Part shown: positions 29,724 through 53,537 of the stretch, in pieces
How the letters are laid out: every line of letters starts with the position of its first letter
How positions within the stretch are numbered: position 1 is the first letter of the stretch
Made by a program: the position numbers and the translations under genes
Notes under the pieces: model-generated
The model's database searches: none
What the model saw: only the letters and a program-made list of their open reading frames with translations
What the model was told of the DNA's origin: nothing
Assembly (NCBI GenBank): GCA_003428585.1
Contig: QVQC01000043.1
Span: 49,936 to 113,935 of the forward strand
Reading direction: 5' to 3'
DNA from: Nioella halotolerans
GTDB lineage: Bacteria > Pseudomonadota > Alphaproteobacteria > Rhodobacterales > Rhodobacteraceae
Length of the DNA: 64,000 bases

Positions 29724-30533
29724 TCAGGAGCCGGGTTTCAGGGTCTGGTCCATGCTCATCGACGGCTGGTCGCAGCCCGCCTCGCCGACGATCTTTGCCG
29801 GAACACCGGCCACCGTGGTTGCCGGCGGCACCTCCTGCAACACGACGGAACCTGCCGCGATCCGGCTGCAGCATCCCACCTTGATATTGCCCAGAACCTT
29901 GGCGCCCGCGCCGATCAGCACGCCATCGCCGATCTTGGGGTGGCGGTCTTCCTCGTCCTTCCCGGTCCCGCCCAGCGTCACCGAATGCAGCATGGACACG
30001 TTGTCGCCCACCACCGCGGTTTCGCCGATGACGATGGAATGGGCGTGGTCGATCATGATACCCTTGCCGATGGTCGCCGCCGGATGGATATCGACGCCGA
30101 ACATCTCGCTCACCCGCATCTGTACGAAATAGGCAAGATCCTTGCGGCCATTGCGCCACAGGTGGTTGCCGACGCGGTAAGCCTGAACGGCCTGGAACCC
30201 CTTGAAGAACAGAAGCGGCTGGATGAACCGGTTGCAGGCCGGGTCACGCTCGAAGACCGCGACGATATCCGCCCGCGCGCTTTCCCCGATCGTCGGGTCG
30301 GCGCGATAGGCCTCGTCCGCGATCTCGCGGACCAGTTGCTCCGACATCTCGCCCGAGGCCAGCTTCTGCGCCATGCGGTAGGCCAGCGCAGCCTCCAGCG
30401 AGCCATGGTGCAGGATACAGGCATGCACCAACCCTCCCAGCAGGGGTTCATTCTGCACCGCCTCCTCGGCTTCGCGGTTGATACGGGTCCAGACCGGGTC
30501 CAGTTCGGCCAGTCGGGTGCGGGTCTTCGCCAT
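29724..30533 (-). CDS. cysE: Serine O-acetyltransferase
   Basis: A 269-residue enzyme making O-acetylserine for cysteine synthesis. The N-terminal helical SATase domain (about residues 1-140) is followed by a left-handed beta-helix of hexapeptide repeats (DIHPAATIGKGIMIDHAHSIVIGETAVVGDNVSMLHSVTLGGTGK) and a C-terminal tail. Both the catalytic histidines and GGTGK loop are present. It is the gene directly beyond the GTA cluster; this GTA-cysE linkage recurs in Rhodobacterales, from what I recall. Confidence 0.95.
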   Translation of the reverse strand: MAKTRTRLAELDPVWTRINREAEEAVQNEPLLGGLVHACILHHGSLEAALAYRMAQKLASGEMSEQLVREIADEAYRADPTIGESARADIVAVFERDPACNRFIQPLLFFKGFQAVQAYRVGNHLWRNGRKDLAYFVQMRVSEMFGVDIHPAATIGKGIMIDHAHSIVIGETAVVGDNVSMLHSVTLGGTGKDEEDRHPKIGDGVLIGAGAKVLGNIKVGCCSRIAAGSVVLQEVPPATTVAGVPAKIVGEAGCDQPSMSMDQTLKPGS

Positions 30534-30624: not shown

Positions 30625-31335
30625 TTATACCGCGTCCGGGATCGACAGGGCGAGGTAATGCGCCGCCAGCGTGACGCGCCCGGTCGCGAAGTCGCCCCCG
30701 TTGGCGGTCAGGATCACCTCGGTATCCGCCCAGGCCACCGCCGGGTCGGTCGGCCCGCCGAGCCAGGAATTGACGGCCAGACCCAGCCCGTTGCCAAAGC
30801 GCGCGTCCGATCCCGCCTCGCCGGCGCGCCAGTCGCTGAGCGTCCCGGTGATCGTCTCGGTCACACGACCCGTGACGCCCAGCATGATGCTGCGCGCCGG
30901 GAAGAGCAGCCCGGTCGCCACCGTTGGCCCGGCGCCGACCGACACGTCGGCCTCGACGCTTTCGGCGCGCAGGCCGCCGCCGCCCGGCGTCACGCCGAAA
31001 GCCCCCCGGCGCCAGCTATTGCCGTCATGCAGGTCACAACTGCCCGTATCCTCGACAAAGGCCCGCCAGCCGCGCCGCGGGATGAAGAACACCCAGCCGC
31101 CGCCGGAATACTGCGCCACCTCGCCGGCATGCCCGGCCCAGTCGTTCACCGCGCCCGCGGGCACGCCGAAGCAGTCGCCCTCCTGCACCGTGGCCGGCGG
31201 GTCGGTCAGCGTGCGCGTGCGCAGCCGCAACTGCACCACCCCGTCGAGCCGGGTCAGCGCCTCGTTCACCGTCACGTGCTTTTGCGCCTGGCTCGCGGCC
31301 AGCAGGGGAAGGGTCAGGTTGGTTGTATCAGCCAT
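30625..31335 (-). CDS. DUF2793-family tail-associated protein at the end of the GTA cluster
   Basis: A 236-residue protein starting TNLTLPLLAASQAQKHVTVNEALTRLDGVVQL, the DUF2793 signature found in phage and GTA tail regions, followed by a Gly/Ala-rich beta-sheet-like body. Its start overlaps the end of the host-specificity gene by 8 bases, so it is translationally coupled to it and probably adds to the tail tip or fibre. The C-terminal half may be the receptor-facing part. No enzymatic motif is visible. Confidence 0.8.
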   Translation of the reverse strand: MADTTNLTLPLLAASQAQKHVTVNEALTRLDGVVQLRLRTRTLTDPPATVQEGDCFGVPAGAVNDWAGHAGEVAQYSGGGWVFFIPRRGWRAFVEDTGSCDLHDGNSWRRGAFGVTPGGGGLRAESVEADVSVGAGPTVATGLLFPARSIMLGVTGRVTETITGTLSDWRAGEAGSDARFGNGLGLAVNSWLGGPTDPAVAWADTEVILTANGGDFATGRVTLAAHYLALSIPDAV

Positions 31336-34300
31336 TGATCTCTATCCTCGTGAAGGGGCCATGTCCGAACCGCGCGGAAACCTGCGCGACCTCGATCGTG
31401 TAGGGCAGGCCCACCGCGTCGGCGGCCTGCATCGCGGCGGTATAGGTGAAGGCGGGGGCCGACAGGTCGACCTCGCGGCGGATGCCGCCCGCATCGGCGA
31501 TGCGCAGCAGGTACGCCTCGTTTTCTTCGCCCAGCGGCACCTCGGCGCCCTGCCAGCTGTCGCCGTCGATCCGGGTGCGCCGGATCCAGCTGACCTGCCG
31601 GTCACCGCCCGAGAGGGTGCTGCGCAGATGCGCCGGGGCATAGGGGCGCAACCCGATCCCGTCGAAGGCCAGCGCCTCCTGCACGTAAACCGGATGGTCG
31701 AGCGGCTTGGCCGCCGGCCCCACCCGGTAATGGCGCTGCAACCCCCGTGCAGAGAGGGGCAGCTCGATCTGGCCCGGCCGCCCGTCGAGCAGCACGAAGA
31801 ACGACCCCGGCGGCCAGTCCTCCGGCATCGTCCCGTCCGACCCCGCCTGCCCGCGCAGGCGCAGGCGGATGTCCCACAGGTCCTCACCCACCAGCGTGGC
31901 CTCGGCGAACTGGATCACCTCCCAGTTGGCGCCGCTGCCATCGCCCACCGCTGCCGCGTTGGCTCCGTTAAGCACATCCGCAGGGCTCGCAGAACTCAGG
32001 CTGCCGGTGCTCATGCGCACGCGCAGCGACGGCCCCCGGTCCCACAGCCCCGGCGTGGCACGCAAAAGCGGGGTTTGCAGAACGCCGACCGCCGACACCA
32101 CCTCGACCAGCCGGTTGAGCGTGTAGCCGCTGTCGCTGGTCGAACTGTAGATTGCGACCGCCCCCGGCCACGGCTCCGCCGCCACCGCGACATGCGGCGC
32201 ATGCGCCACCTCCTCGCCGGTCAAGAGCGGCAAGTCCATGAACAGCGGGCTGACCGGCAGGGGCGGCACGAAAGGCTCCGTGCTCACCGCCGCGTCGACC
32301 GTGTCGGAAGGCTCGTAGACCGCCGCCTCGCTGCGCACCGCCTCGATCATCCGCGCGCCGCGGTCCTCGACCCTGTCGATGCGCCACGTGGTGCCGTCCT
32401 CCAGCGCCACGACAGCCCCCGCCCCCAGCTCGCGGCGCGAGGGCGGCAGGGCAAAGCGCAGGCAGTCGCGCGCCACCCGCGCCTCGGCCAGCCAGCGTTC
32501 CACGATCCCGCGCCCCTCGGCCCCGGTCAGGACAAGCGGCAAGTCACTCTGGCTGACCGCGTCGGCGCCGTCATCGGGGAACACGGTCTCGGCGATCCGG
32601 GTCTCGTAGGCGCCCGACGCCTCGACATGGGCCAGCCGTACCCGGCCGACTTTCTCCGCCTCCGGCAGGCGGCCATGCCGCGGCGCCGACGCTCCGTCAT
32701 CGTCCACCGCCATCGTTTCGGGCCGGATCGTCGCGTCCGGCGCGCTGCCACGCGACCGGAATACGAGGAGCCCCTCGCGCTCCACCGCCTCGAACCCATG
32801 GGCCAGCATCAGGGGTTGCAACCGTGCCCGCGCGCTTTCCACGTCCGACGACATGGCGCCGCGCACGAAACCGTAAAGCCCGGAGACGTCATATTCGGTT
32901 ACCCCGGCATCCTCGCAGATCTCGGCGACAACGTCCGGCAAGGGCTCGGCCCCCGCGCGGCCCGTGATCCAGTGCCCGCGGGCGTGGTTCTCGCCGTCCG
33001 ACCACACGTCCAGCGCATTCGGAAATGCCGGCCATGGCCGCGCGTCCCATGCCCAGACATAGGCGTGGTCCATGTCCAGCATCGGCGCGCCGTAGATTTC
33101 CGACACCGGGTTATGCGCCGGGTCGCGCCAGTAGCTCGTCATCGCGCGCAGGTATTGCATCTGTATCAGGTCATCCCTGCGACCGGTCGAATAGTGCGGG
33201 ATGGCCGATTCCGACGATTTCGGATCAAGGAACTTGTTGGGCTGGTTCGTTCCCTTGTCGATCGCGGCACAGCCCATTTCCGTGAAGCGGATGGGCTTGG
33301 AGCAGGGAATCCACGGGCTTCGAACCGAGTGATCCCGGTTGAGCGACGTGACCTCGATACGGGAAATCTGCGTCACGGCACCTGCGGTATCGTAGGGGGT
33401 CCAGCCGTTCATCCCGACCATCAGCCGCCAGCCCTTGGCGTCGGCGTCGATACCGCCTTGCCCCAGATAGTCGGAGGGCGTGACCGTCACGCTGTGCTCG
33501 ACCCAACCATCGGCGACCGTCTGGCCGATCCACTGGCCAATCTGCGCGAAATTTCCGAAATCCCCGTTCGCCGCAATCACGGCAAGGTAGAGTCGCCAGC
33601 GATGCGGATGGCCGTCGGAGGGTTCCGAAAGCAGCCGCATGCGCAGGGTGATGCGCATGGTTTCGCCCGGATCGAACCGGCGATATGCGGCCTCGCTCAT
33701 GATGCGGTACTCGTCGGAGGTCTGGATGACATTGCCCTCGCCGGCGACCGGCACAACCGATACCTCGGCGTATAGATCGGCCACCGTCGAATCGGTGGCA
33801 AGCTCCGATTCATCCTGCCGGTAAAAGCCAAGCCAGTAGGCATCGCCATGCTCGAAAGTTCCGTCGAACGGCATGGCGCCGACAACCGGCGGCTCGACCA
33901 GAACCGCGCCTCCGCGGCGCTCCAGGTGGGGCGACTGCCACCAGCCGCGCAAATCCTTGTAGCGGAACACCCAATGCTGCTCGTAGGCGCCATCGGTGAT
34001 CGCCTCCCGGCGCTGCGCATCGCGGGCCTCGGCGCTCGGATAGTACCAGTCATAGCCCTCGCCGCCCTCGATATTGGCGTGCAGGTAGCCAAGGTCGTAG
34101 ATCGTGCGCCACGCGGCATCGGCGTGATCTGTCCCGTCGCGCCAATCCGACAGCGGCATGTAATTGTCGATCCCGATGAAATCGATATTGGCGTCGGCCC
34201 AGAGCGGATCGAGGTGGAAATACACGTCGCCCGACCCATCCTGCGGGTGGTAGCCGAAATATTCCGACCAATCGGCCGCGTAGGAGATCCTGGCACCCGG

Positions 34301-35800
34301 CAACAGCGCGCGCACCTCGGCGGCCAGCGCGATCAGCTGGTCGACCGCCGGGAAACCGGCCGCCCCGCGCAATTGCGTCAGGCTGCGCATCTCGGACCCG
34401 ATGCAGAAACTTTCCACCCCCCCGGCCGCCGCGCACAGCGCCGCGTAGTGCAGGATGAAGCGCCGGTAGCTCCATTCCGCGGGGCCGGAATAGGTGACGC
34501 TCCCCGCCCCGACGTCGAAATCCGACGCGCGCGCGGTGCCGAAAAAGGCCGCGACCTCCGCATCTGCCGCCGCCGTCTGGTCGGGCGACCCTGCCACCCC
34601 CGGCGCGAACGCCCCGGTGATGCGCCCGCGCCAAGGCAGTTTCGGCTGCTCAACGGCCTCGCCCCAAGGGTCGGGCTTGCCATTGCCCTCAACGATCTCC
34701 ATCAACAGGAACGGGTAGAACATGACCTCCTGTCCGGCGGCATTCAGCGCCACGATCGCCTCGACCACCGATTGATCGGTCGGCGTGCCGCCATAGATCG
34801 CGCGGCCTTCGACCTCTGCGATCAGCCCGGCCTCCTGCCGCGTCAGGCCAGAAACGCGCCACGGCATTTGAAAGCTGTCGGCCTGTTTCTGTTCCACTTT
34901 CGGCGTGACCCTGCACTGGCCAGCGCGCAGATCGTCACCGAACCAGCTCACGATCAGCGACACCGCACCGCAATTGGGCAACTCGCCCTCCAGCGCCTCC
35001 AGCGACAGGGCGAAATCTGCTTCGCCCGCGGCGGTGTTGACATTGGCGCTCTTGGATTTACCGAAGCCCCACGCATAGCTGACCGGCGTTGTCGCCAGTG
35101 CGTATTCCCCCGATCCCGGCATCATCGCCACCGCGCGGATCGCCTCGGAGGGCTGCGGCGGGCTGTCCAGCCCCTCGGGCCGCGCCGGGCGCATCACCTC
35201 GAAGCTGAGCTGCGGAATGCGGTTGCCGTAGGGCGCGAGGTCCAGATCCTCGATCACCACGTAGGCGATCCCGCGATAGGCCGGCACCGCGCCTGCGCCC
35301 TCGACCGCCTCCATCCGGGGATCCGGCGTCTGGTCCTCGGTGCCGCGGTAAATGCGCATCGTGATGTCGCCCCGGGCGACCTCCGCGCCATCGGCCCAGA
35401 CCCGGCCGACGCGCGCGATCTCTCCTTCGCACAGCGCCACGGCAAGGCTGACCGTGTAGGAATAGCTGGCCGTCCGGGGCACCGGCGGCGCCCCCTTGCC
35501 GCCGCCGCTGACGCTCACATGTTCCTTGAAGCGGGTGGCCCAGATCACCTGCCCGCCCATGCGCATCTGGCCGAAAAGCCGCGCCACCGGCGCCCCCTCG
35601 GCGGTGCCGGTCAGCCGGAAACGGTCGATCCGGCCCTGTTCGACCACGTCGGAGCCCGCGCCCAGCAGCCGCTGGTCGATGACCCGGCCCAGCGTGGCGC
35701 CCGCCGCACGGCCGATGACCGCCCCGGTGAGCCCCAGAAACGTGCCCGAGCTCAGCCCGCCAATGGCCGCGCCCGCGGCTGACAAAAGGATCGTTGCCAT
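31328..35800 (-). CDS. GTA host-specificity / tail-tip megaprotein (g15) with inserted domain
   Basis: A 1,490-residue tail-tip protein. Residues 1-210 form the N-terminal hub-like part, about 400-930 the GTA TIM-barrel glycoside-hydrolase-like domain (ADWSEYFGYHPQDGSGD, FIGIDNYMPLSDWRDG, KPIRFTEMGCAAIDKG, PKSSES), about 950-1130 the phage-tail-3 region, and the rest a C-terminal receptor part. Residues about 636-822 form an extra beta-rich domain splitting the barrel between HLERRGG and SPWIPCSKPIRFTE; relatives that I know are near 1,300 residues without it. It ends with an 8-base overlap into the DUF2793 gene. Confidence 0.92.
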   Translation of the reverse strand: MATILLSAAGAAIGGLSSGTFLGLTGAVIGRAAGATLGRVIDQRLLGAGSDVVEQGRIDRFRLTGTAEGAPVARLFGQMRMGGQVIWATRFKEHVSVSGGGKGAPPVPRTASYSYTVSLAVALCEGEIARVGRVWADGAEVARGDITMRIYRGTEDQTPDPRMEAVEGAGAVPAYRGIAYVVIEDLDLAPYGNRIPQLSFEVMRPARPEGLDSPPQPSEAIRAVAMMPGSGEYALATTPVSYAWGFGKSKSANVNTAAGEADFALSLEALEGELPNCGAVSLIVSWFGDDLRAGQCRVTPKVEQKQADSFQMPWRVSGLTRQEAGLIAEVEGRAIYGGTPTDQSVVEAIVALNAAGQEVMFYPFLLMEIVEGNGKPDPWGEAVEQPKLPWRGRITGAFAPGVAGSPDQTAAADAEVAAFFGTARASDFDVGAGSVTYSGPAEWSYRRFILHYAALCAAAGGVESFCIGSEMRSLTQLRGAAGFPAVDQLIALAAEVRALLPGARISYAADWSEYFGYHPQDGSGDVYFHLDPLWADANIDFIGIDNYMPLSDWRDGTDHADAAWRTIYDLGYLHANIEGGEGYDWYYPSAEARDAQRREAITDGAYEQHWVFRYKDLRGWWQSPHLERRGGAVLVEPPVVGAMPFDGTFEHGDAYWLGFYRQDESELATDSTVADLYAEVSVVPVAGEGNVIQTSDEYRIMSEAAYRRFDPGETMRITLRMRLLSEPSDGHPHRWRLYLAVIAANGDFGNFAQIGQWIGQTVADGWVEHSVTVTPSDYLGQGGIDADAKGWRLMVGMNGWTPYDTAGAVTQISRIEVTSLNRDHSVRSPWIPCSKPIRFTEMGCAAIDKGTNQPNKFLDPKSSESAIPHYSTGRRDDLIQMQYLRAMTSYWRDPAHNPVSEIYGAPMLDMDHAYVWAWDARPWPAFPNALDVWSDGENHARGHWITGRAGAEPLPDVVAEICEDAGVTEYDVSGLYGFVRGAMSSDVESARARLQPLMLAHGFEAVEREGLLVFRSRGSAPDATIRPETMAVDDDGASAPRHGRLPEAEKVGRVRLAHVEASGAYETRIAETVFPDDGADAVSQSDLPLVLTGAEGRGIVERWLAEARVARDCLRFALPPSRRELGAGAVVALEDGTTWRIDRVEDRGARMIEAVRSEAAVYEPSDTVDAAVSTEPFVPPLPVSPLFMDLPLLTGEEVAHAPHVAVAAEPWPGAVAIYSSTSDSGYTLNRLVEVVSAVGVLQTPLLRATPGLWDRGPSLRVRMSTGSLSSASPADVLNGANAAAVGDGSGANWEVIQFAEATLVGEDLWDIRLRLRGQAGSDGTMPEDWPPGSFFVLLDGRPGQIELPLSARGLQRHYRVGPAAKPLDHPVYVQEALAFDGIGLRPYAPAHLRSTLSGGDRQVSWIRRTRIDGDSWQGAEVPLGEENEAYLLRIADAGGIRREVDLSAPAFTYTAAMQAADAVGLPYTIEVAQVSARFGHGPFTRIEING

Positions 35801-35805
35801 GTCGT

Positions 35806-36237
35806 TCAGGTCCTTTCGGGAAATGCAAACCGCGCCACGATCCGCCGCGCCCAGGGCGGCGTCAGCGCGCTTTCGACCACGCCGTGGCCGCTATAGGCAT
35901 GGATGAAACTGGCCACCGGCCCGGTTTCGGCCTGAAGCCCCAGATGCTTGGCCACCACCCCCGCGCGCAGCCGGAAGAGCAGCACGTCGCCGGGCCGCGC
36001 CGCGTTCATCGGCTTGGCCACGAGGTGGCGCAATGCCGCCGCCCAGAGCCGCTCCTCGCCCTGCGGCTCTGACCAGTCGGGGGTATAGGCGGGCACCGCT
36101 TCCGGCTCCGGCCCGATCACCTCGCGCCAGACCCCGCGCAACAGCCCAAGGCAATCGCAGCCCGCCCCGCGCGTGGAACACTGGTGCAGGTAGGGCGTGC
36201 CGATCCAGCCCCGCGCCGCCGTCACCACGCGGCTCAC
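35806..36237 (-). CDS. GTA NlpC/P60 cell-wall peptidase (g14)
   Basis: A 143-residue NlpC/P60 cysteine peptidase expected to cut host peptidoglycan at the tail tip during DNA delivery. The nucleophile lies in GAGCDCLGLLRGVW (Cys28) and the His in VAKHLGLQ. It starts with GTG overlapping the g13 stop (GTGA), behind a GGGGAG site. Short, single-domain and without a signal peptide, as in RcGTA. Confidence 0.92.
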   Translation of the reverse strand: MSRVVTAARGWIGTPYLHQCSTRGAGCDCLGLLRGVWREVIGPEPEAVPAYTPDWSEPQGEERLWAAALRHLVAKPMNAARPGDVLLFRLRAGVVAKHLGLQAETGPVASFIHAYSGHGVVESALTPPWARRIVARFAFPERT

Positions 36238-37121
36238 CGCAAGCTCCCCCCGTCCACCGGGGACCCACCGCGCGCCGGATGCGCCATGATCCAGTCCTCC
36301 CCCGGAATGTCGGGAAAGCCACGGAAATTCAACAAGTTGGAGAATTTGAGGCGGCAGGTCTCCATGCGTTTGTCACAACCGGCTTCCAATCGTACCCTGT
36401 CACCGGGGGCGAGATCTGCGCGCAGGTCCTCCCACAGTTCGACCCGGCGCACGCCATCCGCGAAGCGGTCGTTCTTGATGACACCGACCAGCCCCTCGGC
36501 CACGCCCGACAGCACCTTGAGGCGTCCGCGCTCGAACCAGCGCGGCTCGAAACTGTCCAGCCCGTCGAAGTCCAGCAGCCGCCGCGCGCTGACGCGGGTC
36601 ACCGCGCCCTCATGCGCGTAGCCCGGCGTCGACAGGTCGAAGCGGCAATCGCCATCGCCCAGAATGGCGGAACAGCCACGCTGATAGACCCGGCCCTCGG
36701 CGCGGTTCATCGCCTCGGCCAGCCCGCGCAGTTCCACCGTGAAGCCGCCCGCCTGCCGCTCCATCTCGCCGAAGCTGCCGCGAAATTGCAGAACCCGATT
36801 GTCCGGGTTGCTCCATTGCACCAGCCAGGCCTCCACCTCGGCGCCGTCGAAGCGGCCCGCCTCGATATCGGCCTCGGTGATCGCGGCATCCGACAGCGCG
36901 CCAAGCGCCTCGGTATTGTCCACCGATAGCCCCGTGCTTTGCGACAGCGCCGCCGCGGACAGGCCGGTTTCCGCCTTGAACACGGTCCCGTCGAAGGTCA
37001 GCGCGCCATCGTGATCGGTAAAGGCGAAGCGCACCCCGTCCTCGCGCGTCACCCGCCAGCAGCGCGCGACCTCGGTCACGCCACGCTGAAGATGCGCGTC
37101 CAGTCTCGCCGCGCCGTTCAT
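36234..37121 (-). CDS. GTA baseplate protein, DUF2163 family (g13)
   Basis: A 295-residue tail-tip/baseplate hub component. It contains the DUF2163 pattern RCWRVTREDGVRFAFTDHDGALTFDG near the N-terminus and conserved cysteines later (GCSAILGDGDCRF, AGCDKRMETCRLKFSNLLNFRGFPDIPGED), the latter probably a metal site as described for the RcGTA hub. ATG overlaps the g12 stop by 4 bases, and g14 overlaps its end. Confidence 0.92.
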   Translation of the reverse strand: MNGAARLDAHLQRGVTEVARCWRVTREDGVRFAFTDHDGALTFDGTVFKAETGLSAAALSQSTGLSVDNTEALGALSDAAITEADIEAGRFDGAEVEAWLVQWSNPDNRVLQFRGSFGEMERQAGGFTVELRGLAEAMNRAEGRVYQRGCSAILGDGDCRFDLSTPGYAHEGAVTRVSARRLLDFDGLDSFEPRWFERGRLKVLSGVAEGLVGVIKNDRFADGVRRVELWEDLRADLAPGDRVRLEAGCDKRMETCRLKFSNLLNFRGFPDIPGEDWIMAHPARGGSPVDGGSLR

Positions 37122-37750
37122 AGCCGGATCTCCACGACCGGGACGGAGGGCGCCTCGCCCGCCTTGAAACTCGCCACCGACGTCCGAATGCTGTCGGTGT
37201 CGAAGCGCACCGGCACGTCGAACTCGAATCCCGCCGAGACCTCGACGCCGGGATCGGGCGCATCGGTGAACGTGATCATCCCCGTCGTCGCATCGACCTC
37301 GAAATGCACGCCGGCGACCAGCTCGCTGCCATCGACCCCGGCCAGCACGCTGCCCGCGACCGGCTTGGCGATCGGCCGCGCATAGCTTTCCGCGCCCGAC
37401 CGGTAGAGTTTCACGATCTGGAAATCCCGCCGCTGCCCGTCGCCCGCCCCAATCACGCAATCGCGGAACCCCGGCACGCGCGAGGGCGGGCTGCTCTTGT
37501 AATCCGACCAATCCTTCCAGCGAAAGCCGTGCAACTGCCCGCGCCGCGCCTCGAAAAAGGCGATCAGCGTCTCGATATCGTCGAGCGAGCGCATCCCCAG
37601 CCCGGCGTCGTAGCGCCGGCGCGAATGCGCCCAGGGCGTGTTGCGCTCCTCGAACCCGTTGGCCAGCGTCACCACCTCGGTGCGCCGTTCCGGCCCGCCG
37701 ACGGAGCCGAAGCTCAGGTTGGCGGGAAAGCGAATCTCGTGGAAATTCAT
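37118..37750 (-). CDS. GTA distal tail protein, DUF2460 family (g12)
   Basis: A 210-residue protein beginning FHEIRFPANLSFGSVGGPERRTEVVTL, the DUF2460 signature, and including ARRGQLHGFRWKDWSDYKS. In RcGTA it forms the distal tail ring joining the tube to the baseplate. AAGGAAGG lies upstream of the ATG. It is 14 bases after g11 and overlaps g13. Confidence 0.92.
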   Translation of the reverse strand: MNFHEIRFPANLSFGSVGGPERRTEVVTLANGFEERNTPWAHSRRRYDAGLGMRSLDDIETLIAFFEARRGQLHGFRWKDWSDYKSSPPSRVPGFRDCVIGAGDGQRRDFQIVKLYRSGAESYARPIAKPVAGSVLAGVDGSELVAGVHFEVDATTGMITFTDAPDPGVEVSAGFEFDVPVRFDTDSIRTSVASFKAGEAPSVPVVEIRL

Positions 37751-38940: not shown

Positions 38941-39357
38941 TCAGAGCGCCGCGGTAAAGCTCAGCGCACCCGCCGAGGCGAGCGATACCTCGTAGGTCGC
39001 CTCGCCGTCATGAGTGCCGGCATATTCGATCGCGGTGATCTGGAACGGCCCCTCGACGGTGCCGAAATCGGGGATGATGACCTGGAAATCCGGCACCTCG
39101 CCGTCAAAGAAGATCTGCCGCGCGCGTTCATCCGTGTCCGCGTCGCGGAAGATACCCGAGCCAGAGATCGCGGCGGTCTTCACGCCTGCGCCGCCCAGCA
39201 ACTCGCGCCAGCCGCCGGTCGATTCCAAGCTGGTGACATCCACCGTCTCGGCATTGAAGCTAAGACGCGAGGCGCGCAACCCCGCCATGGTCTGAAACGC
39301 GCCGTTGCCGTCCAGATCGACCTTCACCAGAAGGTCCTTGCCATTTTGTGCAGACAT
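38941..39357 (-). CDS. GTA major tail tube protein (g9)
   Basis: A 138-residue protein of the TP901-1 major tail family: AQNGKDLLVKVDLDGNGAFQTMAGLRASRLSFNAETVDVTSLESTGGWRELLGGAG. Six copies per ring make the tail tube. It is of normal family length and stands 3 bases before g10. Confidence 0.92.
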   Translation of the reverse strand: MSAQNGKDLLVKVDLDGNGAFQTMAGLRASRLSFNAETVDVTSLESTGGWRELLGGAGVKTAAISGSGIFRDADTDERARQIFFDGEVPDFQVIIPDFGTVEGPFQITAIEYAGTHDGEATYEVSLASAGALSFTAAL

Positions 39358-40875: not shown

Positions 40876-42072
40876 TCAGGCGATGCCGAATTTCAGCAGC
40901 TTGATCGCGGCGAAGTCGCTGACATCGCCGCCGACGCGCTTGGTGGCATAGAACAGGACGTGCGGCTTGGCACTGAACGGGTCGCGCAGCACGCGCAGTT
41001 CCGGGCGCTCGGCAATGGTGTAGCCGGCGCGGAAATCGCCGAAGGCGATCGCCATCGCGTTCGAGGCGATGTCGGGCATGTCCTCGGCGATCAGCACCGG
41101 GTAGCCCATCAGCCGCGCCGGTTCCCCGGCGGCCAGGCCGTCCGACCACAGGAAGCGGCCATCGGCATCCTTCATCTTGCGCACAGCGCCGGCGGTCTTG
41201 GAATTCATCACGAAGGCGGCATTGGCGCGGTAGCGCGCGCCCAGCGAATAGACAAGGTCGACCACTGCATCGGCCGGGTTCGCCGCGTCGAAATCGCCGT
41301 CGGTGCCGGTAATGACGTAGCCCAAGTTGCCCCAGGACCAGCCGGATTCGGCCATCGCGGAATGGGTCAGGAAGCCCGTGGGCTTGTCCACCCCGTCACC
41401 CGTCACGAACGCATTGGCCTCGGCCCGCGCGAACTTGTCGGCGATGCGGCCCGCCAGCCACCCCTCGATATCGAAAGCGGTGTCATCGAGCAGCCGCTGC
41501 GACGCCTTGGGCAGCGCTGAAAGCTCGTGCAGCGGGATCGAGATACGCTCGATCTGCGGCGTGTCGGTTTCGGTCGCGGCCGCCGTTTCCGAGGCCCAGC
41601 CGGCGCCGACATCGGTGGTATCGACCAGCACGTCGAAGGACGTTGCCTCGACATTGACCACGTTGGCAATCGCCCGCAGGCTGGAAGAGCCGCGCAACAC
41701 GCCCTGGATCATCTCGGCGGTCTGCGGATCGACGAGGTAGCCGCCCTCGGCATTCACCGCGGTGTTGAGCGCCTTGCCCTCCAGTTCCAGACCGCGCAGG
41801 CCGTCATCGTCGCCGGTGCGCAGGTAAGCGCCAAGCGCCTTCTTGTGGGGGGCGCCCTCGTCGGATTGGGCCGAAAGCGCCGGGCGCAGATGGGGCATGG
41901 TCTTGGTATTCAGCATGGCGATACGCTCTTCCTGTTTTTGAAGCTTCGTGGAAATGTCGTCCTGAAACTGGCTGAATTCGCACAGGAATCCTGCCAGTGC
42001 AGATTTCACTTCACGGGTCGGGTCATTGGGCATCGCCCCCCGGCCCGACCCTTGGGTCTCGGTCTCGGTCAT
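40876..42072 (-). CDS. GTA major capsid protein, HK97 fold (g5)
   Basis: A 398-residue HK97-fold capsid precursor. Residues 1 to about 100 are the helical delta/scaffold domain, probably cut by the g4 protease after the SAQSDEGAPHKKALGAYLR neighbourhood, with the mature fold beginning near LNTAVNAEGGYLVDPQTAEMI. The frame opens with a GTG directly before the ATG; the ATG with AGGAAA upstream was chosen. Confidence 0.95.
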   Translation of the reverse strand: MTETETQGSGRGAMPNDPTREVKSALAGFLCEFSQFQDDISTKLQKQEERIAMLNTKTMPHLRPALSAQSDEGAPHKKALGAYLRTGDDDGLRGLELEGKALNTAVNAEGGYLVDPQTAEMIQGVLRGSSSLRAIANVVNVEATSFDVLVDTTDVGAGWASETAAATETDTPQIERISIPLHELSALPKASQRLLDDTAFDIEGWLAGRIADKFARAEANAFVTGDGVDKPTGFLTHSAMAESGWSWGNLGYVITGTDGDFDAANPADAVVDLVYSLGARYRANAAFVMNSKTAGAVRKMKDADGRFLWSDGLAAGEPARLMGYPVLIAEDMPDIASNAMAIAFGDFRAGYTIAERPELRVLRDPFSAKPHVLFYATKRVGGDVSDFAAIKLLKFGIA

Positions 42073-42107
42073 CACGGTTTCCTGATTGTTGAGAGGATTG
42101 CGGGGCC

Positions 42108-42671
42108 TTAACGCGCCGCCAGTTTGCGGCGGGCGTCCTGGAACACCGTCGCCAGTTCATGCAGGAGGTCGCCCTTGGCCGCCTCGGCCTGTCGGGCCCC
42201 CACCCGCGCCTGCGGAAGCATCGGGAAGGTCACCAGCGACACCTCCCAAAGATCCACCTCGGAAAGGAGCCGTTGCCCCTTGTCGGTCTTGCCCGCGCGC
42301 AGCGTCCGGTAGCCGATGGACAGCCCGTCGATCGCGCCCGCACCGATCAGCGCCGCCGCCTCGCGGCCCTTTTCCACGCTGTCGAGGATCCGCCCCTTGA
42401 CCCAGAGGCCCTTGCCATCCTCGTGCAATTCGTCCCAGACCCCGATGGGCTGCGCCGGGTCGTGCTGCCACAGCATCTTGATCCGCCGGCCTTCCGTCGC
42501 CAGCCCCTTCAGGCTGCGCGCATAGGCGCCCTTCTGCACCACGTCGCCGCCCTGGTCGCAGGTGCCGAAAAGGCTGGCATAGCCCTCGATCACAAGGCCG
42601 TCGCTCACCGTCAGCGCGGCATCGAATCGGCAGAATTTCACTTCCAATCCGCTTGGGGAAAACTCAAGCAT
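42108..42671 (-). CDS. GTA prohead protease (g4)
   Basis: A 187-residue HK97-family prohead serine protease: EGYASLFGTCDQGGDVVQKGAYARSL, MLWQHDPAQPIGVWDELHEDGKGLWVKG and LSIGYRTLRAGK with EVSLVTFPMLPQA. The His in WQHD and Ser in GLSIGY are the expected catalytic residues. It processes the capsid scaffold domain. Confidence 0.93.
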   Translation of the reverse strand: MLEFSPSGLEVKFCRFDAALTVSDGLVIEGYASLFGTCDQGGDVVQKGAYARSLKGLATEGRRIKMLWQHDPAQPIGVWDELHEDGKGLWVKGRILDSVEKGREAAALIGAGAIDGLSIGYRTLRAGKTDKGQRLLSEVDLWEVSLVTFPMLPQARVGARQAEAAKGDLLHELATVFQDARRKLAAR

Positions 42672-42680
42672 TCCAATCTC

Positions 42681-42929
42681 CTATCCAGCAGAGCTCATCT
42701 GAACGATTTCCTTGATCGCCTGCGCCAGCACCACGCTGACAACGCCGAACACGGCCAGCCACAGCCGCCGCTCCAGCCGTTCCAGCGCCGTCTCGATCGC
42801 GTTGAGGCGAAACTCCAGCGCCTGCCAGCGTTCCTCGGCGACGCGTTCATTGGCCTCGATGCGGGCATTGGCCGCGTCGAACGGGGCGTAGAGGAAGCGC
42901 GAGCCGCCCGCTTCGCCCCGCGCGCTCAT
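42681..42929 (-). CDS. GTA head-formation protein, Rcc01685 family (g3.5)
   Basis: An 82-residue protein with an amphipathic coiled-coil stretch (NARIEANERVAEERWQALEFRLNAIETALERLERR) and one C-terminal membrane-like helix (LWLAVFGVVSVVLAQAI). It corresponds in position and layout to the small gene between portal and protease in RcGTA, needed for head formation. GGAGGAGG precedes the ATG, which overlaps the portal stop by 4 bases. Confidence 0.85.
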   Translation of the reverse strand: MSARGEAGGSRFLYAPFDAANARIEANERVAEERWQALEFRLNAIETALERLERRLWLAVFGVVSVVLAQAIKEIVQMSSAG

Positions 42930-44101
42930 GCCTCCTCCGGCAGCGGCGGCAGCCCCAGCATCCGGCGTTTCTCGGCCGCGGTCAGGAAATCGGCCTCGGC
43001 GACGCGGGCCCATTGCGCGTCACGCTCGGCAGCCAGCGCCGGCACCTGGTCCCGGTCGGGCCGCAGCTCCGCCGCCTCGCCCGTCCAGCCTGCCAGCCAG
43101 TGCGACAGCGCCGCCAGCACCTTCGCCGCCAGCGGCAGCACCGTGAGGCGATAGAAGGCCCGGTTCGCCTCTGCGTAATTGGCGTAGGTGGCGTCGCCTG
43201 GTATTCCCAGCATCATCGGCGGCACCCCGAAGGCCAGCGCGATGTCGCGCGCCGCCGCGTCCTTGGTCTTGTGGAACTCCATGTCCGAGGGGCTGAACCC
43301 CATCGGTTTCCAGTCCAGCCCCCCTTCCAGCAGCATCGGCCGGCCGGCATTGCGCGCGCCCTGGTGGTGGCTCTCCATCTCGTCCTGTAGCCGCTCGAAC
43401 TGCTCGGGCGTCATCGTCCCCGCCCCGTCCGGCCCGCGGTAGACAATCGCGCCAGAGGGCCGCGCGGCATTGTCCAGCAGCGCCTTGGACCAGCGCGAGG
43501 CGCTGTTATGCACGTCCAGTGCCGTCGCCGCCGCCTGCATCGGCGACAGGCCGTAATGGTCGTCCTGCGGGTGGAACAGCTTCACATGGCAGATCGGGCT
43601 CGGCCCACCCTGCACGTGGAACCGGTGTTTCTTGCCCCCCACCGCGTAATCATAGGCCACCGGCCAGCCATCGGGCCCCGGAACAAGGCGCATCCGGTCG
43701 GCGCGCAGCACGTGCAACTCGCCCGGCAGGGCACCATCAGGGCTGACCGCCTCGACATAGCCATTGCCCGACAGCAGCAATTGCGCATAAAGCGCCTCGA
43801 GGAACTCCGCCCGCCCCTGCGCCCCGTTGGGCCGCGCCAGCAACGCCAGGACCGGATGCACCTCGTAGCGCCGCTCGGCATCCTGGCACAGCACCGGCAA
43901 CGCGGCGGCGGCCTCGGCGATCAGCTTGACCGCCCGGAAGCCCACCGGGTTGCCGGTGAACCCCGTCTTGGTCAGCGAAACCGTGTCGCGCGGGCTCCAG
44001 GCCACCCGGCCCGACCCGGACCAGGCCACCACCCGGCCGGTCGCCGAGGCCTTGGCCTCGGGCGCCTCCGGCTCCGCCCGTCGCAAGAAATCCAACACCA
44101 T
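42926..44101 (-). CDS. GTA portal protein (g3)
   Basis: A 391-residue HK97-type portal subunit with NPVGFRAVKLIAEAAAALPVLCQ, LHVLRADRMRLVPGPDGWPVAYDY, VKLFHPQDDHYGLSPMQAAATALDVHNSASRWSKALLDNAARPSGAIVY and GVPPMMLGIPGDATYANYAEANRAFYR. Twelve copies make the DNA entry channel. It ends in a 4-base overlap with g3.5. Confidence 0.95.
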   Translation of the reverse strand: MVLDFLRRAEPEAPEAKASATGRVVAWSGSGRVAWSPRDTVSLTKTGFTGNPVGFRAVKLIAEAAAALPVLCQDAERRYEVHPVLALLARPNGAQGRAEFLEALYAQLLLSGNGYVEAVSPDGALPGELHVLRADRMRLVPGPDGWPVAYDYAVGGKKHRFHVQGGPSPICHVKLFHPQDDHYGLSPMQAAATALDVHNSASRWSKALLDNAARPSGAIVYRGPDGAGTMTPEQFERLQDEMESHHQGARNAGRPMLLEGGLDWKPMGFSPSDMEFHKTKDAAARDIALAFGVPPMMLGIPGDATYANYAEANRAFYRLTVLPLAAKVLAALSHWLAGWTGEAAELRPDRDQVPALAAERDAQWARVAEADFLTAAEKRRMLGLPPLPEEA

Positions 44102-44197: not shown

Positions 44198-45604
44198 TCA
44201 GATCTGCCGGATGCCCGGCCGCGCCTGTCCCCGCGCCGGCAGGATCATCCCGTCGGTCAGCGCCCAGACAAGCGCGTCCACCCGGTCCGGGCTGCCGGGC
44301 CCCTCGTAGCCGGTGATCGACATCCGGCACATCTGGTCTTCCAATTCCGGCAAGCCGCCCAGATGCGCCACCCGCCCCTGTTCGTAAAGCGCGGCCACCG
44401 GTTCGGCCCGCGCCACCTTGCCCCGCGCCGCATGCACGGACCGGACATTGACCAGCGGGTCGACCATCCGCACCGCGTCCAGCACCAGGTCGCCGCCCTG
44501 GTTGACCTCGGCCACCATCCGTTCGGCCCCGTGGCGGTGATAAGCGGCCACCGCCGCCTCGGCCCAGCCATTGGCCGACACGCCCTGCACCGAACAATCC
44601 TCGATCACCACCGCGTGCCAGTCCCGTGGTGGCCCCGCCTGCACCACGCCGACAACGACGATCCCGCAAGCATCCGACCCGGCATGCCCTGTCACCGGCG
44701 GGTCCACCGCCACGGTGATCCGCGCGCCCACGGGCACCGCCTCCGCCCGCGCGCCGTCCAGCAGGCCCTGCGACCACAGCGCGCCCTCGGCCTCCTCGAC
44801 CAGTTCGCCATCCAGTTCCTGCCGGCCCAGCCGCGTCGCACCGTAGCGCGCCCGCACCTCCTCAAGGAACGACTCGGCCAGAAAGGCCCGGTTCGCCTCG
44901 GTCGGGGCATGGGTGCTGACCGTGCTGTCCCGCCCCAGCAAGTCCTTCAGAACCCCCACGTTGCGCGGCGTCGTGGTCACACAGACCCGCGGATGATCGC
45001 CCAGCCGCAACCCGAATTGCAGCATATCCCACGTCTGCTGCGCCTTGGGCCATTTCGCCAGTTCGTCGGCCCAGGCGGCATCGAATTGCGGCCCGCGCAG
45101 CGCCTCCGGGTCATGCGCGGAATAGAGCCGCGCCTCCGCCCCGTTGGGCCAGACCAGCCGCCGCTCGCCCGCCACCCAGCGCGGCCGCCGATCCGGGGGG
45201 GAGCAGGCCAGAAGCCCGCTCTCCCCCTTCACCATCACCGCCAGCGCCTGGTCATAGGTCTCGCCCACCAGCGCGACGCGCCGGGCGCGGCCGGGGGCCG
45301 CGGGCGTCGCGCCCTCGACCATCGCCCGCACCCATTCGGCCCCGGCGCGGGTCTTGCCCGCCCCGCGCCCGCCCAGCACCACCCAGGCGCGCCAGTCGCC
45401 CTCGGGCGGCAGTTGATGCGGCAGCGCCCAGAAGTCGAACAGCCACGGCAGCGCCGCCAGCGCGGTCTCACTCAGCCCCGCCAGGAACGTCTCCACCGCT
45501 TCCTGCGGCACGCAGGCAAGCGAGGCGGACCCCGATCTCAGCGCGTGCCGCGTCGAGGTCGAGCTGCCCCGCCCCTGCCTGTCCGATCCGCTGTCCTGTC
45601 GCAT
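44198..45604 (-). CDS. GTA terminase large subunit (g2)
   Basis: A 468-residue DNA-packaging motor. ATPase: Walker A GGRGAGKTRAG (about residues 78-88) and Walker B-like AAWADE. Nuclease domain: VAVDPPVTG, ERMVAEVNQGG and SPDRVDALVWAL. The ATG at 45604 has a strong GGAGGGGAAGG but lies 137 bases inside g1, giving about 30 extra N-terminal residues; a GTG at 45511 (before PQEAVETFLAGLS) matches relatives better and is the main alternative. Confidence 0.93.
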   Translation of the reverse strand: MRQDSGSDRQGRGSSTSTRHALRSGSASLACVPQEAVETFLAGLSETALAALPWLFDFWALPHQLPPEGDWRAWVVLGGRGAGKTRAGAEWVRAMVEGATPAAPGRARRVALVGETYDQALAVMVKGESGLLACSPPDRRPRWVAGERRLVWPNGAEARLYSAHDPEALRGPQFDAAWADELAKWPKAQQTWDMLQFGLRLGDHPRVCVTTTPRNVGVLKDLLGRDSTVSTHAPTEANRAFLAESFLEEVRARYGATRLGRQELDGELVEEAEGALWSQGLLDGARAEAVPVGARITVAVDPPVTGHAGSDACGIVVVGVVQAGPPRDWHAVVIEDCSVQGVSANGWAEAAVAAYHRHGAERMVAEVNQGGDLVLDAVRMVDPLVNVRSVHAARGKVARAEPVAALYEQGRVAHLGGLPELEDQMCRMSITGYEGPGSPDRVDALVWALTDGMILPARGQARPGIRQI

Positions 45605-49158: not shown

Positions 49159-50457
49159 GTGCGCCTTGCCCCGTTCCTTGCCCTGCCGCCCATCGCGCTC
49201 GCGATCGCCGCCGCGGTCTGGATGATTGCCTCGGCGCCCGGTCCGGCGCAGGTCGACGGAGACGCGCCAGCACTGCCGGTTCGGGTGATCACGGTCGCGG
49301 CGGAAGATCTCCGCCCCACCGCCACCGCGTGGGGCAACCTGCGCGCCGCCGATAGCTGGGTCGCCGTCGCCGAGGTGCAGGGCGAGGTGATCTGGCGCCA
49401 TCCCGACCTTGAGCCGGGCCGCCTGATCCCGGCCGGGACGGACGTGCTGCGCATCGACCCGGCCGATTACCAATTGTCGCTCGCCCAATCGCAGGCCGAT
49501 CTTGACGCGCTGGAGGCCGAGCGTGCGCAGCTTGAGGCGGAGACGGAGAACACGCGTCGCATCCTGGTGCTGGAACGCGAGCGGCTGTCGCTGGCCGAAG
49601 CGGAGCTTGAGCGAACGCGCTCGCTCTTCGCGCAGGGCAACGTGCCGCAAGCGCGCGCCGACGAGGCCGAGCGCGCGACCCTGCTGGCCCGGCGCACGGT
49701 GGCCGAACTGGAGAACGCGCTGGCGCTCATCCCGTCGCGGCAGGCGCGGATCACGGCACAGGTGGCGCGCAACGAGGCCGCGATCGCGCAGGCACGGCGG
49801 TCGCTGGAGCGGACAACCCTTGCAACGCCCTTCGATCTGCGCGTGACCGAGGTGAACGCCGAACGCTTCCAGACCGTCGCGCCCGCGCAGGTTCTGATCC
49901 GCGGCGACGGGATCGCGGCGGCCGAGGTCGTGGCGCATCTGCCCATCGACGCCTTTCGCCGCCTCGTGGGCGATATGCCCGACGGCGTCACCCTTGGCGA
50001 CATGATGCGCGACGGCCCCGCGACGCGCATCGACGTGACGCTCAGCCCCTTGTCGGACCCCGCGCAGATCTGGCCCGCCCGCGTGACCCGGATCGAGGGG
50101 TCGCTTGACGCGCGCGCCCGGACGGTGCCCGTCGTGGTGACGGTCGATGACCCATACGAGGGCGCGGACCCGCCCCGGCGCCTGCCGCTGGTGCCCAACA
50201 TGCAGGTGCAGCTTTCCTTTTCGGGCGCGCCCCTGACGGGGGCCATCGCGATCCCCGAGGCGGCCTTGCATGCCGGCAGGGTCCGCGTCGTTGATTCCGA
50301 TGATCGGCTGGCCCTGCGCCCCGTCACTGCCACCTTTGCGCAAAACGGCCGCGTCGTAATCGCCGACGGGCTCGCCCCCGGCGACCGGGTTGTGGTCGAC
50401 GACATCGCCCCGGCGATCCCCGGCATGGCGCTGACGCCTGTCGAGGACCCGGAATGA
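49159..50457 (+). CDS. RND efflux membrane-fusion (periplasmic adaptor) protein
   Basis: A 432-residue adaptor starting at GTG, with an N-terminal membrane anchor (LAPFLALPPIALAIAAAVWMIA), a barrel-sandwich lipoyl-like domain (VAVAEVQGEVIWRHPDLEPGRLIPAGTDVLRIDPADY), a long alpha-helical hairpin (about residues 110-205, rich in Glu/Arg/Leu), and beta-barrel and membrane-proximal domains. Several Met codons upstream belong to another frame. Its stop overlaps the permease start (ATGA). Confidence 0.92.
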   Translation: MRLAPFLALPPIALAIAAAVWMIASAPGPAQVDGDAPALPVRVITVAAEDLRPTATAWGNLRAADSWVAVAEVQGEVIWRHPDLEPGRLIPAGTDVLRIDPADYQLSLAQSQADLDALEAERAQLEAETENTRRILVLERERLSLAEAELERTRSLFAQGNVPQARADEAERATLLARRTVAELENALALIPSRQARITAQVARNEAAIAQARRSLERTTLATPFDLRVTEVNAERFQTVAPAQVLIRGDGIAAAEVVAHLPIDAFRRLVGDMPDGVTLGDMMRDGPATRIDVTLSPLSDPAQIWPARVTRIEGSLDARARTVPVVVTVDDPYEGADPPRRLPLVPNMQVQLSFSGAPLTGAIAIPEAALHAGRVRVVDSDDRLALRPVTATFAQNGRVVIADGLAPGDRVVVDDIAPAIPGMALTPVEDPE

Positions 50458-53400: not shown

Positions 53401-53537
53401 AGGCGCAGACTCTCAAGCCGCTGGTCATCGCCGTGGTCTTCGGCCTGCTGGCGGCGACGGTGCTGATCCTTTTGGTCCTGCCCGCGTTCTACGCGGCGTT
53501 GCAGGATATCCGGGGTGAGAAAAAGGCGGGGCAATGA
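50454..53537 (+). CDS. RND-family efflux permease (AcrB/MMPL-type)
   Basis: A 1,027-residue inner-membrane pump of 12 predicted helices with two large periplasmic loops. N-terminus IRWFTGHPTAGNLLLLLVLAAGVFAAP, TM4 proton-relay GIGIVMDDSIVIAES, and the closing LVGAASLAGIVVNNAILLVGVINARR are typical of the HAE1-like RND family. It works with the adaptor encoded just upstream; no outer-membrane channel gene is adjacent. Substrate unknown. The strong overlap indicates coupled translation. Confidence 0.95.
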   Translation: MIRWFTGHPTAGNLLLLLVLAAGVFAAPGLLRETFPDFRAVEAEITIPYRGAAAEDVEGAICAPLWDGVQGVEGLETLTCTAQTGRARAVATMAPGNDALRFVNALRTEVSAIDTFPDRADPAIVRELHRSDPVTSVAVSGDLPLGDLDLYADALSDRLSALPGVSRVTRSGLGTRTLAITARRAVLDSHGLTPASLAAAIAAQNIDLPAGTLEGPGEDLTLRFTAERDTATALATIPVLVLPGGATLTLGDVAVIEERFEPPDERAFVDGMPAIVIDVAKALDADALRVLDGVAALVAGETARLPDMVAVEVVQDVTSIIRDRLLMLVQNGVIGLVLVVAVMSLFFRPGFAIWAAMGLPVAFAGAFVWMALTGLSLNMMTLVALLMAIGIVMDDSIVIAESIAVHAAKGASVETVTAGVAAVAPGVISSFLTTLAVFLPLAFLAGELGAVLEVLPVVLLAALAASLIEAFFILPHHLKGGMKDTAPSRFRVRFDAGFDALRERGIGRLADAAIRWRWLVAGLAIGALILTVGALGGGVVKREAMPEIDGDVLEARILLPAGTPLARTTEAVAQVEEALDRVNARLTPDQPEAQPLVIRRITRLGRNLSAGETGAHVATVAVDLLGAETRSSTLDDIVTLWRAEIGPLPGVTSLILTEPGIGPQGIAVELRLTHPDLATLEEAGRATLAELETYAGVRNAILDLRPGTPELRLGLAPGAEALGLTAEDVAGQLRAAFLGTQLSEIRRGDLAWDLEVRLSDSDRATRADLTAFEIALANGDTVPLGSIATITEALGWGTITRRNGVRTLTVAADVDGRIGNADAITARLAENFLPELAATTPGLTFDVGGQAANSAETVASILRGFLIGLVGIYIVLSFQFRSYVEPLIVMITIPLAFLGVIWGHVLMGYNISMPSLVGAASLAGIVVNNAILLVGVINARRAEGLSPALAAGAAVRARFRPIFVSVTTTIMGMAPLLLETSTQAQTLKPLVIAVVFGLLAATVLILLVLPAFYAALQDIRGEKKAGQ

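What the first reader, a model, noticed from the sequence alone, without database searches (positions are those of the whole stretch)
33335..33895. GTA host-specificity protein carries an inserted carbohydrate-binding-like domain
Within the TIM-barrel domain, the conserved path from RYKDLRGWW...HLERRGG to SPWIPCSKPIRFTEMGC is interrupted by about 187 residues (about 636-822) with a jelly-roll-like pattern: FDGTFEHG...W start, PGETMRITLRMRL middle and a final ISRIEVTSL strand, as in CBM4/9-type modules. The protein is longer than RcGTA g15 (about 1,300 residues from memory) by about this amount. DNA here also looks slightly less GC-biased. A binding module in the tail tip could alter which cells the GTA can deliver DNA to.
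Basis: partly seen in the sequence, partly recalled or inferred. Interest (0 to 1): 0.78.

Follow-up and report, generated by a model that had tools for sequence, protein, structure and literature searches.

The report
Sugar-binding-like domain inserted in GTA tail tip
A bacterial gene-delivery particle has an extra, sugar-binding-like module slotted into its tail-tip protein, at a loop where relatives carry other modules or none, which may tune which cells it attaches to.

Summary
Confirmed. The 1,490-aa ORF at 31328-35800 (-) is a GTA megatron (g15; NF048004, 1,821 bits, cut-off 800). It carries an in-frame insert of about 195 residues (632-826; 33323-33907) between the KDLRGWW helix and the PIRFTEMGC strand of the GTA_TIM domain. 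RcGTA g15 (1,304 aa) lacks it. AlphaFold models alone and in context give a beta-sandwich whose best PDB matches include CBM22 and CBM16. Searches of Pfam, PHROGs, NCBIfam, PDB sequences and phage records gave no significant match.

Within the genus the window has domain type A, one species has none, and three have an unrelated type B. Elsewhere in the family the loop holds type A, B, B-short or a glycine-rich domain. A second loop 25-40 residues upstream holds an F5/8-type-C domain, or a module shared with Rhodobacter and Dinoroseobacter phages. On a core tree the states change at least 17 times.

Best reading: interchangeable glycan-recognition modules on a GH113-like baseplate domain, working like 'evolved Dit' CBM insertions in siphophages. 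Roseophage R4C has a CBM-like megatron insertion at a third site, so this is a new variant of a known kind. Ligand and effect on recipients are untested.

The parts
31328..35800 (-). GTA g15 / megatron (baseplate multidomain protein), 1,490 aa
   Evidence: NCBIfam NF048004 GTA_megatron equivalog 1821 bits, cut-off 800; Pfam GTA_TIM, Phage-tail_3, Rcc01698_C
33323..33907 (-). type A insert, residues 632-826, CBM-like beta-sandwich (predicted)
   Evidence: absent from RcGTA; homologues in 3 other megatrons; fold
33902..34474 (-). first part of the GTA_TIM domain (residues 443-633), up to the insert
   Evidence: Pfam PF13547
32966..33322 (-). second part of the TIM (peripheral) domain, residues 827-945, downstream of the insert
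   Evidence: phmmer to 6tba_8A and 8gtc_M resumes at 826/828; end chosen by me for the model construct
34391..34393 (-). Glu470 codon (CIGSE), candidate acid/base position of the GH113-like barrel
   Evidence: Glu in 144 of 144 rows, duplicates included; GH113-like fold; the catalytic role is inferred
33278..33280 (-). Glu841 codon (FTE), candidate nucleophile position, on the strand right after the insert
   Evidence: Glu in 144 of 144 rows, but this motif was part of the pattern used to pick rows; catalytic role inferred
33941..34030 (-). position of the second insertion loop (about residues 591-620), unoccupied here; some relatives and phages carry domains here
35806..36237 (-). g14 tail peptidase (NlpC/P60); g numbers here and below are recalled
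36234..37511 (-). g13 baseplate hub (ORF from an upstream TTG; true start later)
37118..37750 (-). g12 distal tail protein (DUF2460)
38941..39357 (-). g9 tail tube
40876..42075 (-). g5 major capsid protein
42108..42671 (-). g4 prohead protease
42926..44101 (-). g3 portal
44198..45604 (-). g2 large terminase
30625..31335 (-). DUF2793 protein directly downstream of g15 (overlaps its end)
29724..30533 (-). serine acetyltransferase, in the place of cysE1 beside the RcGTA cluster
   Evidence: PMC9552610 abstract and passages

Best explanation
The insert is an independently folding, CBM-like beta-sandwich in a surface loop of the megatron's peripheral, GH113-like TIM domain. There should be three copies per particle, because the RcGTA baseplate holds three megatrons. 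It most likely binds a polysaccharide (capsule, exopolysaccharide or LPS glycan) of recipient cells. It would thereby help the baseplate dwell on and orient to the surface before the megatron's N-terminal helices open the channel. The loop is a hotspot where the recognition module is gained, lost and exchanged between lineages, so the module would tune which recipients are bound. Shown: insertion, polymorphism and exchange within orthologous GTA loci, and the predicted fold. Inferred: sugar binding, surface exposure in the particle, and the effect on recipients.
For: The insert is missing from RcGTA, from a congener (G004) and from most relatives seen. The locus is orthologous: g12, g14, g15, DUF2793, serine acetyltransferase and E2 keep their order in G002, G003, G004 and L118. 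Amino-acid identity to G004 and G002 is 88-92% in the 40-codon bins from residue 841 to 1000, though only 60-62% in the bin just upstream of the insert (601-640). AlphaFold: insert alone pLDDT 67.6, pTM 0.69; in context pLDDT 74.2. Foldseek PDB: CBM22 4xuo E 4.8e-6, CBM16 2zey TM(target) 0.62-0.65, CBM4-2 1k42 E 7.2e-5; in context CBM16 2zey TM(target) 0.70, and the barrel matches R4C megatron (E 3.7e-27) and GH113 mannanases. BFVD matches include phage tail fibres, minor tail proteins and CBM-cenC proteins. Other occupants of the loops are domains of kinds found in adhesion (that use is recalled): F5/8 type C above the Pfam cut-off and Gly_rich_2 above cut-off. Core tree: at least 17 state changes where 7 is the least possible; type A 4 changes, 3 forced by starred branches. 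Insert identity does not follow the core: window against L123 46% insert and 59% core; window against L118 44% and 74%. The second-loop module of GTA megatrons is homologous to that of phages RcMrWorf and R5C (hhalign E 5e-36 and 9e-32). Precedents: R4C megatron carbohydrate-binding domain 482-629 (PMC10276861, passages); evolved Dit insertions help adsorption to EPS+ hosts (PMC10688798, abstract); lack of capsular polysaccharide is an important reason for a strain's failure to receive RcGTA (PMC10218006, passages).
Against: No significant sequence match of the insert to any CBM or other family (Pfam, PHROGs, INPHARED, PDB sequences; NCBIfam). TM scores to CBMs are moderate (0.35-0.52 by query over the 50 rows), and sandwiches with other ligands also rank high there (meprin MAM, ephrin receptor, Cry). 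Residues 6-47 of the insert are poorly predicted (pLDDT below 50). No sugar-binding residues were identified. The secondary-structure order puts the insert in an alpha-to-beta loop, which in a classical barrel is the face opposite the active site; its exposure in the assembled baseplate was not tested. The tree is a quick LG+G4 search; states are clustered on it (shuffled mean 25.5 changes, as low as 17 in 0 of 200), the window-G004 pairing has support 82 only, and the rows are biased towards long ORFs and close relatives.
Confidence: 0.6

Rival explanations
1. The insert is an assembly or docking domain: it contacts neighbouring baseplate parts (distal tail protein, hub, fibre, or a detachable tailspike like TspA) and has no ligand on recipient cells.
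For: TspA docks on RcGTA megatron loop 591-599 (PMC13420450, passages), which by the alignment lies about at window residues 589-597, at the second insertion loop and some 35-40 residues before this one; the window genome has a 773-aa protein with a pectate-lyase-like match and TspA-like layout (identity with TspA itself not tested).
Against: Unrelated domains take the same loop in sister species whose neighbouring genes are orthologous, which fits changing external ligands better than a fixed internal partner. No detectable similarity between the insert and the TspA-like protein.
Confidence: 0.2
2. The insert is a beta-sandwich that binds a protein or other non-glycan receptor.
For: Meprin MAM and ephrin-receptor sandwiches score nearly as well as CBMs; no sugar-binding residues identified.
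Against: CBM22 tops the list, CBM16 and CBM4 are among the 50 best, and it sits in a GH113-like domain; capsular polysaccharide matters for RcGTA receipt.
Confidence: 0.1
3. The insert is a tolerated, selectively neutral addition carried by recombination between GTA and phage genes.
For: A homologous second-loop module is shared by GTAs and phages; type A is rare (3 of 394 family genomes); GC3 is a little lower than in the rest of the gene.
Against: The frame is open; 36 columns are invariant among four distant inserts; a 20-row clade on the core tree keeps some insert in 19 rows while changing its kind, though insert-bearing rows were sampled by preference.
Confidence: 0.08

Closest known systems
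RcGTA megatron, Rcc01698/g15 (PDB 6tba, 6teh; PMC7296036)
   Same: Same protein and architecture over residues 1-631 and 826-1488; serine acetyltransferase gene downstream of the cluster in both
   Different: Has a linker of a few residues where the window has about 195 residues
Roseophage R4C megatron (PDB 8gtc; PMC10276861)
   Same: Megatron with an extra CBM-like domain (482-629) inserted in the peripheral domain
   Different: A phage; inserted at a third loop (window residue 476) and not at the window's loop
Evolved Dit of lactococcal skunaviruses (PMC10688798)
   Same: Carbohydrate-binding domain inserted into a baseplate protein; recombinant phages with it adsorb to and infect EPS+ cells (abstract)
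   Different: A different protein (Dit), Gram-positive hosts, true phages
Phage megatrons RcMrWorf gp40 and R5C gp67
   Same: GTA_TIM proteins with an inserted domain at the neighbouring (second) loop; the same module occurs there in GTA megatrons
   Different: Other loop and a different domain, concanavalin-like by recalled pattern only (no significant library match)

Membership tests
GTA megatron (g15) | Scores above the curated cut-off of the GTA_megatron equivalog model | tested here: met
   NF048004, 1821.4 bits against 800
GTA megatron (g15) | Lies in a GTA head-tail cluster and not in a complete prophage | tested here: inconclusive
   Terminase, portal, protease, capsid, head and tail completion, tail tube, GTA-gp10, Dit, hub, peptidase and megatron homologues on one strand, serine acetyltransferase next to them; integrase and lysis genes were not searched for
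CBM-like beta-sandwich (fold) | Two-sheet sandwich similar to solved CBMs | tested here: met
   Foldseek hits to CBM22, CBM16 and CBM4 with the insert model and to CBM16 and CBM22 with the larger model, TM moderate
CBM4/9/16/22 (sequence family) | Significant match to the family's sequence profile | tested here: not met
   No Pfam match up to E 5, none in PHROGs up to E 1 or NCBIfam up to E 0.01; best PDB sequence match E 0.28, to an unrelated reductase
CBM | Binds carbohydrate without cleaving it | not testable with these tools
   needs a binding assay
GH113 (host barrel) | Passes the GH113 model and keeps a pair of catalytic glutamates | tested here: inconclusive
   PF22612 27.6 bits against 27, below the cut-off in 4 of 8 relatives; fold match to GH113 mannanases; Glu470 and Glu841 in 144 of 144 rows; activity unknown
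Type B insert family of congeners | Sequence homology with the window insert | tested here: not met
   hhalign probability 0.2; blastp E 0.049 over 30 residues; no A-B pair at E 0.01 or better among 16 inserts

The most novel reading that the evidence does not exclude
GTA megatrons have at least two insertion loops in which whole recognition domains of several unrelated families are exchanged between lineages, and shared with true phages at one of them. A domesticated, non-replicating particle would thus keep diversifying its recipient recognition as a phage does, which implies ongoing selection on whom GTAs deliver DNA to.
Probability: 0.5. Interest if true: 0.75.

Novelty: new variant of a known kind. 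Interest (0 to 1): 0.58.

Why it matters
Why bacteria keep GTAs is an open question. If the tail tip keeps swapping recognition modules, recipient choice is under selection, and the insert type becomes a readable marker of predicted recipient range that can be tested against capsule types. It also supplies a natural series of empty, A, B and other states within one genus and family for binding experiments.

Tried and rejected
Intrinsic barrel element: rejected, since RcGTA, congener G004 and most relatives seen lack it. Artefact of assembly: unlikely, as type A homologues occur at the same place in two other family genomes and in IMG/VR contigs. Shared ancestry of types A and B: not detected. 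Shared ancestry with a TspA-like protein: not detected. Type A elsewhere than in megatrons: none found with the profile at E 0.001 in 385 class and 394 family genomes, nor by tblastn of the insert in INPHARED phages up to E 1; the collection scans use short exact peptide patterns and are less sensitive. In one search, 114 of 394 genomes had a match up to E 1; apart from the three megatrons all listed ones had E 4.1e-4 or worse and were taken as chance; the best of these (G213, fetched as L114) was not examined. Foreign origin by composition: weak, the low-GC stretch includes the conserved flanks. In one search the queries g13 and g15C were cut out of frame; their values are void and not used.

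Counting limits: the tree rows (144 rows from loci, 126 after removing duplicates and short rows, 113 after thinning rows without insert) come from loci picked for long ORFs and from the 80 best of 578 IMG/VR matches, so they do not estimate prevalence. L201 fell out of the tree rows; L096, L127 and L128 were not scanned against family libraries, and L134 and L182 only within a longer stretch.

Full report
What the sequence holds. The ORF at 31328-35800 on the minus strand codes for 1,490 aa. It passes NCBI's GTA_megatron equivalog model with 1,821 bits against a cut-off of 800, in two stretches, and Pfam finds GTA_TIM, Phage-tail_3 and Rcc01698_C. It ends a GTA-like head-tail cluster on the same strand: terminase, portal, protease, capsid, head and tail completion proteins, tail tube, GTA-gp10, Dit (DUF2460), hub, NlpC/P60 peptidase, megatron. 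A DUF2793 gene and a serine acetyltransferase follow. cysE1 lies directly downstream of the RcGTA core cluster too (PMC9552610, abstract and passages). Integrase and lysis genes were not searched for.

The insert. RcGTA megatron (6tba_8A, 1,304 aa) aligns to residues 1-631 and 826-1488 and to nothing between. R4C megatron (8gtc_M) also skips this stretch. Over 161 ORFs with both anchors (duplicates included), 121 have a linker of 7-9 residues, 1 has 19 and 39 have 139-285. Seven of the 39 carry their extra domain at an upstream loop.

How common it is. A family search of 394 genomes, nearly all of different genera, found a megatron match in 345. Of the 150 rows listed there (the list was cut), 21 had open frames of 1,420 aa or more. 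One is the window; I fetched the other 20. Twelve of the 150 have an extra domain at one of the two loops (G000, G271, G113, G003, G236, G397, G171, G181, G016, G091, G263, G317); the other nine long ones only have a longer open frame upstream. The listing is ranked by similarity to the window, and shorter rows were only partly fetched, so 12 of 150 is not a prevalence estimate. The window's own type A was found in 3 of 394 family genomes and 1 of 385 class genomes. It also occurs in two IMG/VR contigs (L120/L121, which match L119, and L123). The scan of the 84,980-species genome collection found two loci, an uncultured Nioella sp. and a Rhodobacteraceae MAG.

A hotspot with several kinds of domain. 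Within the window's genus (6 genomes) the window has type A, G004 has none, G001-G003 have type B, and G005 is fragmentary. Types A and B show no detectable homology (hhalign probability 0.2; blastp E 0.049). An all-against-all blastp of 16 inserts at E 0.01 links the four type A inserts with each other, the type B inserts tested (L080, L081, L084, L088, L094, L097, L099, L127) into one group, and the three B-short ones (L096, L134, L182) with each other, and makes no link between these groups. L128 is a near copy of L127. A glycine-rich domain takes the loop in L093 (Pfam Gly_rich_2 above cut-off). Types B and B-short have no significant library match where scanned. A second loop, at residues 591-610, holds an F5/8-type-C domain in L082 (above cut-off). 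It holds another domain in L122, L124, L131, L136 and L141 and in phages RcMrWorf and R5C. The GTA and phage versions are homologous (hhalign probability 99.9 for both, E 5e-36 and 9e-32; about 23 of the 213 columns are barrel). I call it concanavalin-like by recalled pattern only: Pfam found nothing for it and the only PDB profile match was a beta-glucanase at E 0.85. R4C has a third site at window residue 476.

Turnover. On a tree of 113 rows and 1,000 core columns, with both insert neighbourhoods left out, the states need at least 17 changes where 7 is the least possible. Type A needs 4 (3 forced by starred branches), B 6 (5), the second-loop domain 4 (4), B-short 3 (3). One clade of 20 rows (support 99) has 19 insert-bearing rows of four kinds. 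The window pairs with G004, which has no insert, at support 82. Changes cannot tell gain from loss; states are clustered on the tree compared with shuffles (mean 25.5); the search is a quick LG+G4 one with two long phage branches. Insert identity does not follow core identity: window against L118 44% and 74%, window against L123 46% and 59%. Gene order around the megatron is conserved among G002, G003, G004, L118 and the window (its g13 and g15C rows are void). Amino-acid identity to G004 and G002 is 88-92% in the 40-codon bins from residue 841 to 1000, and 60-62% in the bin just upstream of the insert. This is domain exchange within an orthologous locus, and no second GTA is needed to explain it.

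Fold. The insert alone, with four sequences, gives pLDDT 67.6 and pTM 0.69; residues 6-47 are poor. Foldseek's first PDB hits are CBM22 domains (E 4.8e-6), with CBM16 (2zey, TM by target 0.62-0.65) and CBM4-2 further down, together with F-box sugar-binding, Cry, MAM and ephrin-receptor sandwiches. A separate model of residues 215-945 (pLDDT 74.2) matches R4C megatron first (E 3.7e-27), GH113 mannanases over the barrel, and CBM16 over the insert (TM by target 0.70); which part each hit covers is read from alignment length and fold, as the output gives no ranges. In the viral library the hits include tail fibres, minor tail proteins and CBM-cenC proteins. So 'CBM-like beta-sandwich' is supported at fold level, and no CBM sequence family is met.

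Where it sits and what it may do. The insert lies between a helix (KDLRGWW) and the strand PIRFTEMG. By secondary-structure order that is an alpha-to-beta loop, in a classical barrel the face away from the active site; this is an inference. Glu470 and Glu841, the positions expected for a GH-A pair (recalled), are Glu in 144 of 144 rows, duplicates included; the second was part of the pattern used to pick rows. In RcGTA the peripheral domain is residues 230-744 and the baseplate holds a megatron trimer; the authors count three oligosaccharide-binding sites in megatrons (PMC7296036, passages). R4C's extra megatron domain was named carbohydrate-binding for its likeness to CtCBM11 (PMC10276861, passages). 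Evolved Dit insertions in skunaviruses help adsorption to EPS+ cells (PMC10688798, abstract). Lack of capsule is an important reason for one strain's failure to receive RcGTA, and five RcGTA proteins, the megatron among them, have domains like sugar binders (PMC10218006, passages). A preprint shows the TspA tailspike docking on megatron loop 591-599 (PMC13420450, passages), which is about window residues 589-597 (alignment), where the F5/8-type-C domain sits in L082. The window genome has a TspA-like protein by size and layout only.

Literature check. Eight searches of the held library, passages of seven papers and the abstract of an eighth showed no description of variable domain insertions in GTA megatrons. 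PMC9836097, a comparative study of GTA genes, has no occurrence of g15, megatron or host specificity in its main text. The library lacks most subscription journals, so this is no proof of novelty.

Verdict. The insert is one state of a variable loop that hosts exchangeable domains. A megatron CBM-like insertion is known in one phage; its recurrent, multi-domain, two-loop form in GTAs appears new.

Noticed in passing
L093 (G091), megatron insert at L093:2604-3455 (-): A 284-residue glycine-rich domain (Gly_rich_2, PHROG 2295) sits in the same loop of another GTA megatron; such domains are found in phage adhesins (recalled).
   Followed up: partly
L201 (RcMrWorf) and L202 (R5C), second loop of the megatron: True phages carry, at the loop that some GTA megatrons also use, a homologous extra domain; 20 further 65-69 kb Rhodobacter phages among the 60 rows show a gap of the same size as RcMrWorf.
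   Followed up: partly
L207:1504-3825 (-), G000 contig 69: A 773-aa protein with a pectate-lyase-like match and a weak End_N_terminal match, laid out like RcGTA TspA; not compared with TspA itself.
   Followed up: partly
G005 contigs C152 and C175 (L116, L074): A congener has two different megatron genes, one 91% and one about 53% identical to the window's, so a second GTA-like or prophage baseplate may be present.
   Followed up: no
window 30625-31335 (-): The gene after g15 is a DUF2793 protein whose start overlaps the g15 end; it is conserved in this place in relatives with and without inserts.
   Followed up: no
G213:C1:3179460-3179792 (L114): Weak match (E 4.1e-4) of the insert in a 477-aa open frame; a possible distant relative in another protein, not examined.
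   Followed up: no
window 49467-53738 (-): A 1,423-aa ORF just beyond the GTA cluster, not identified.
   Followed up: no
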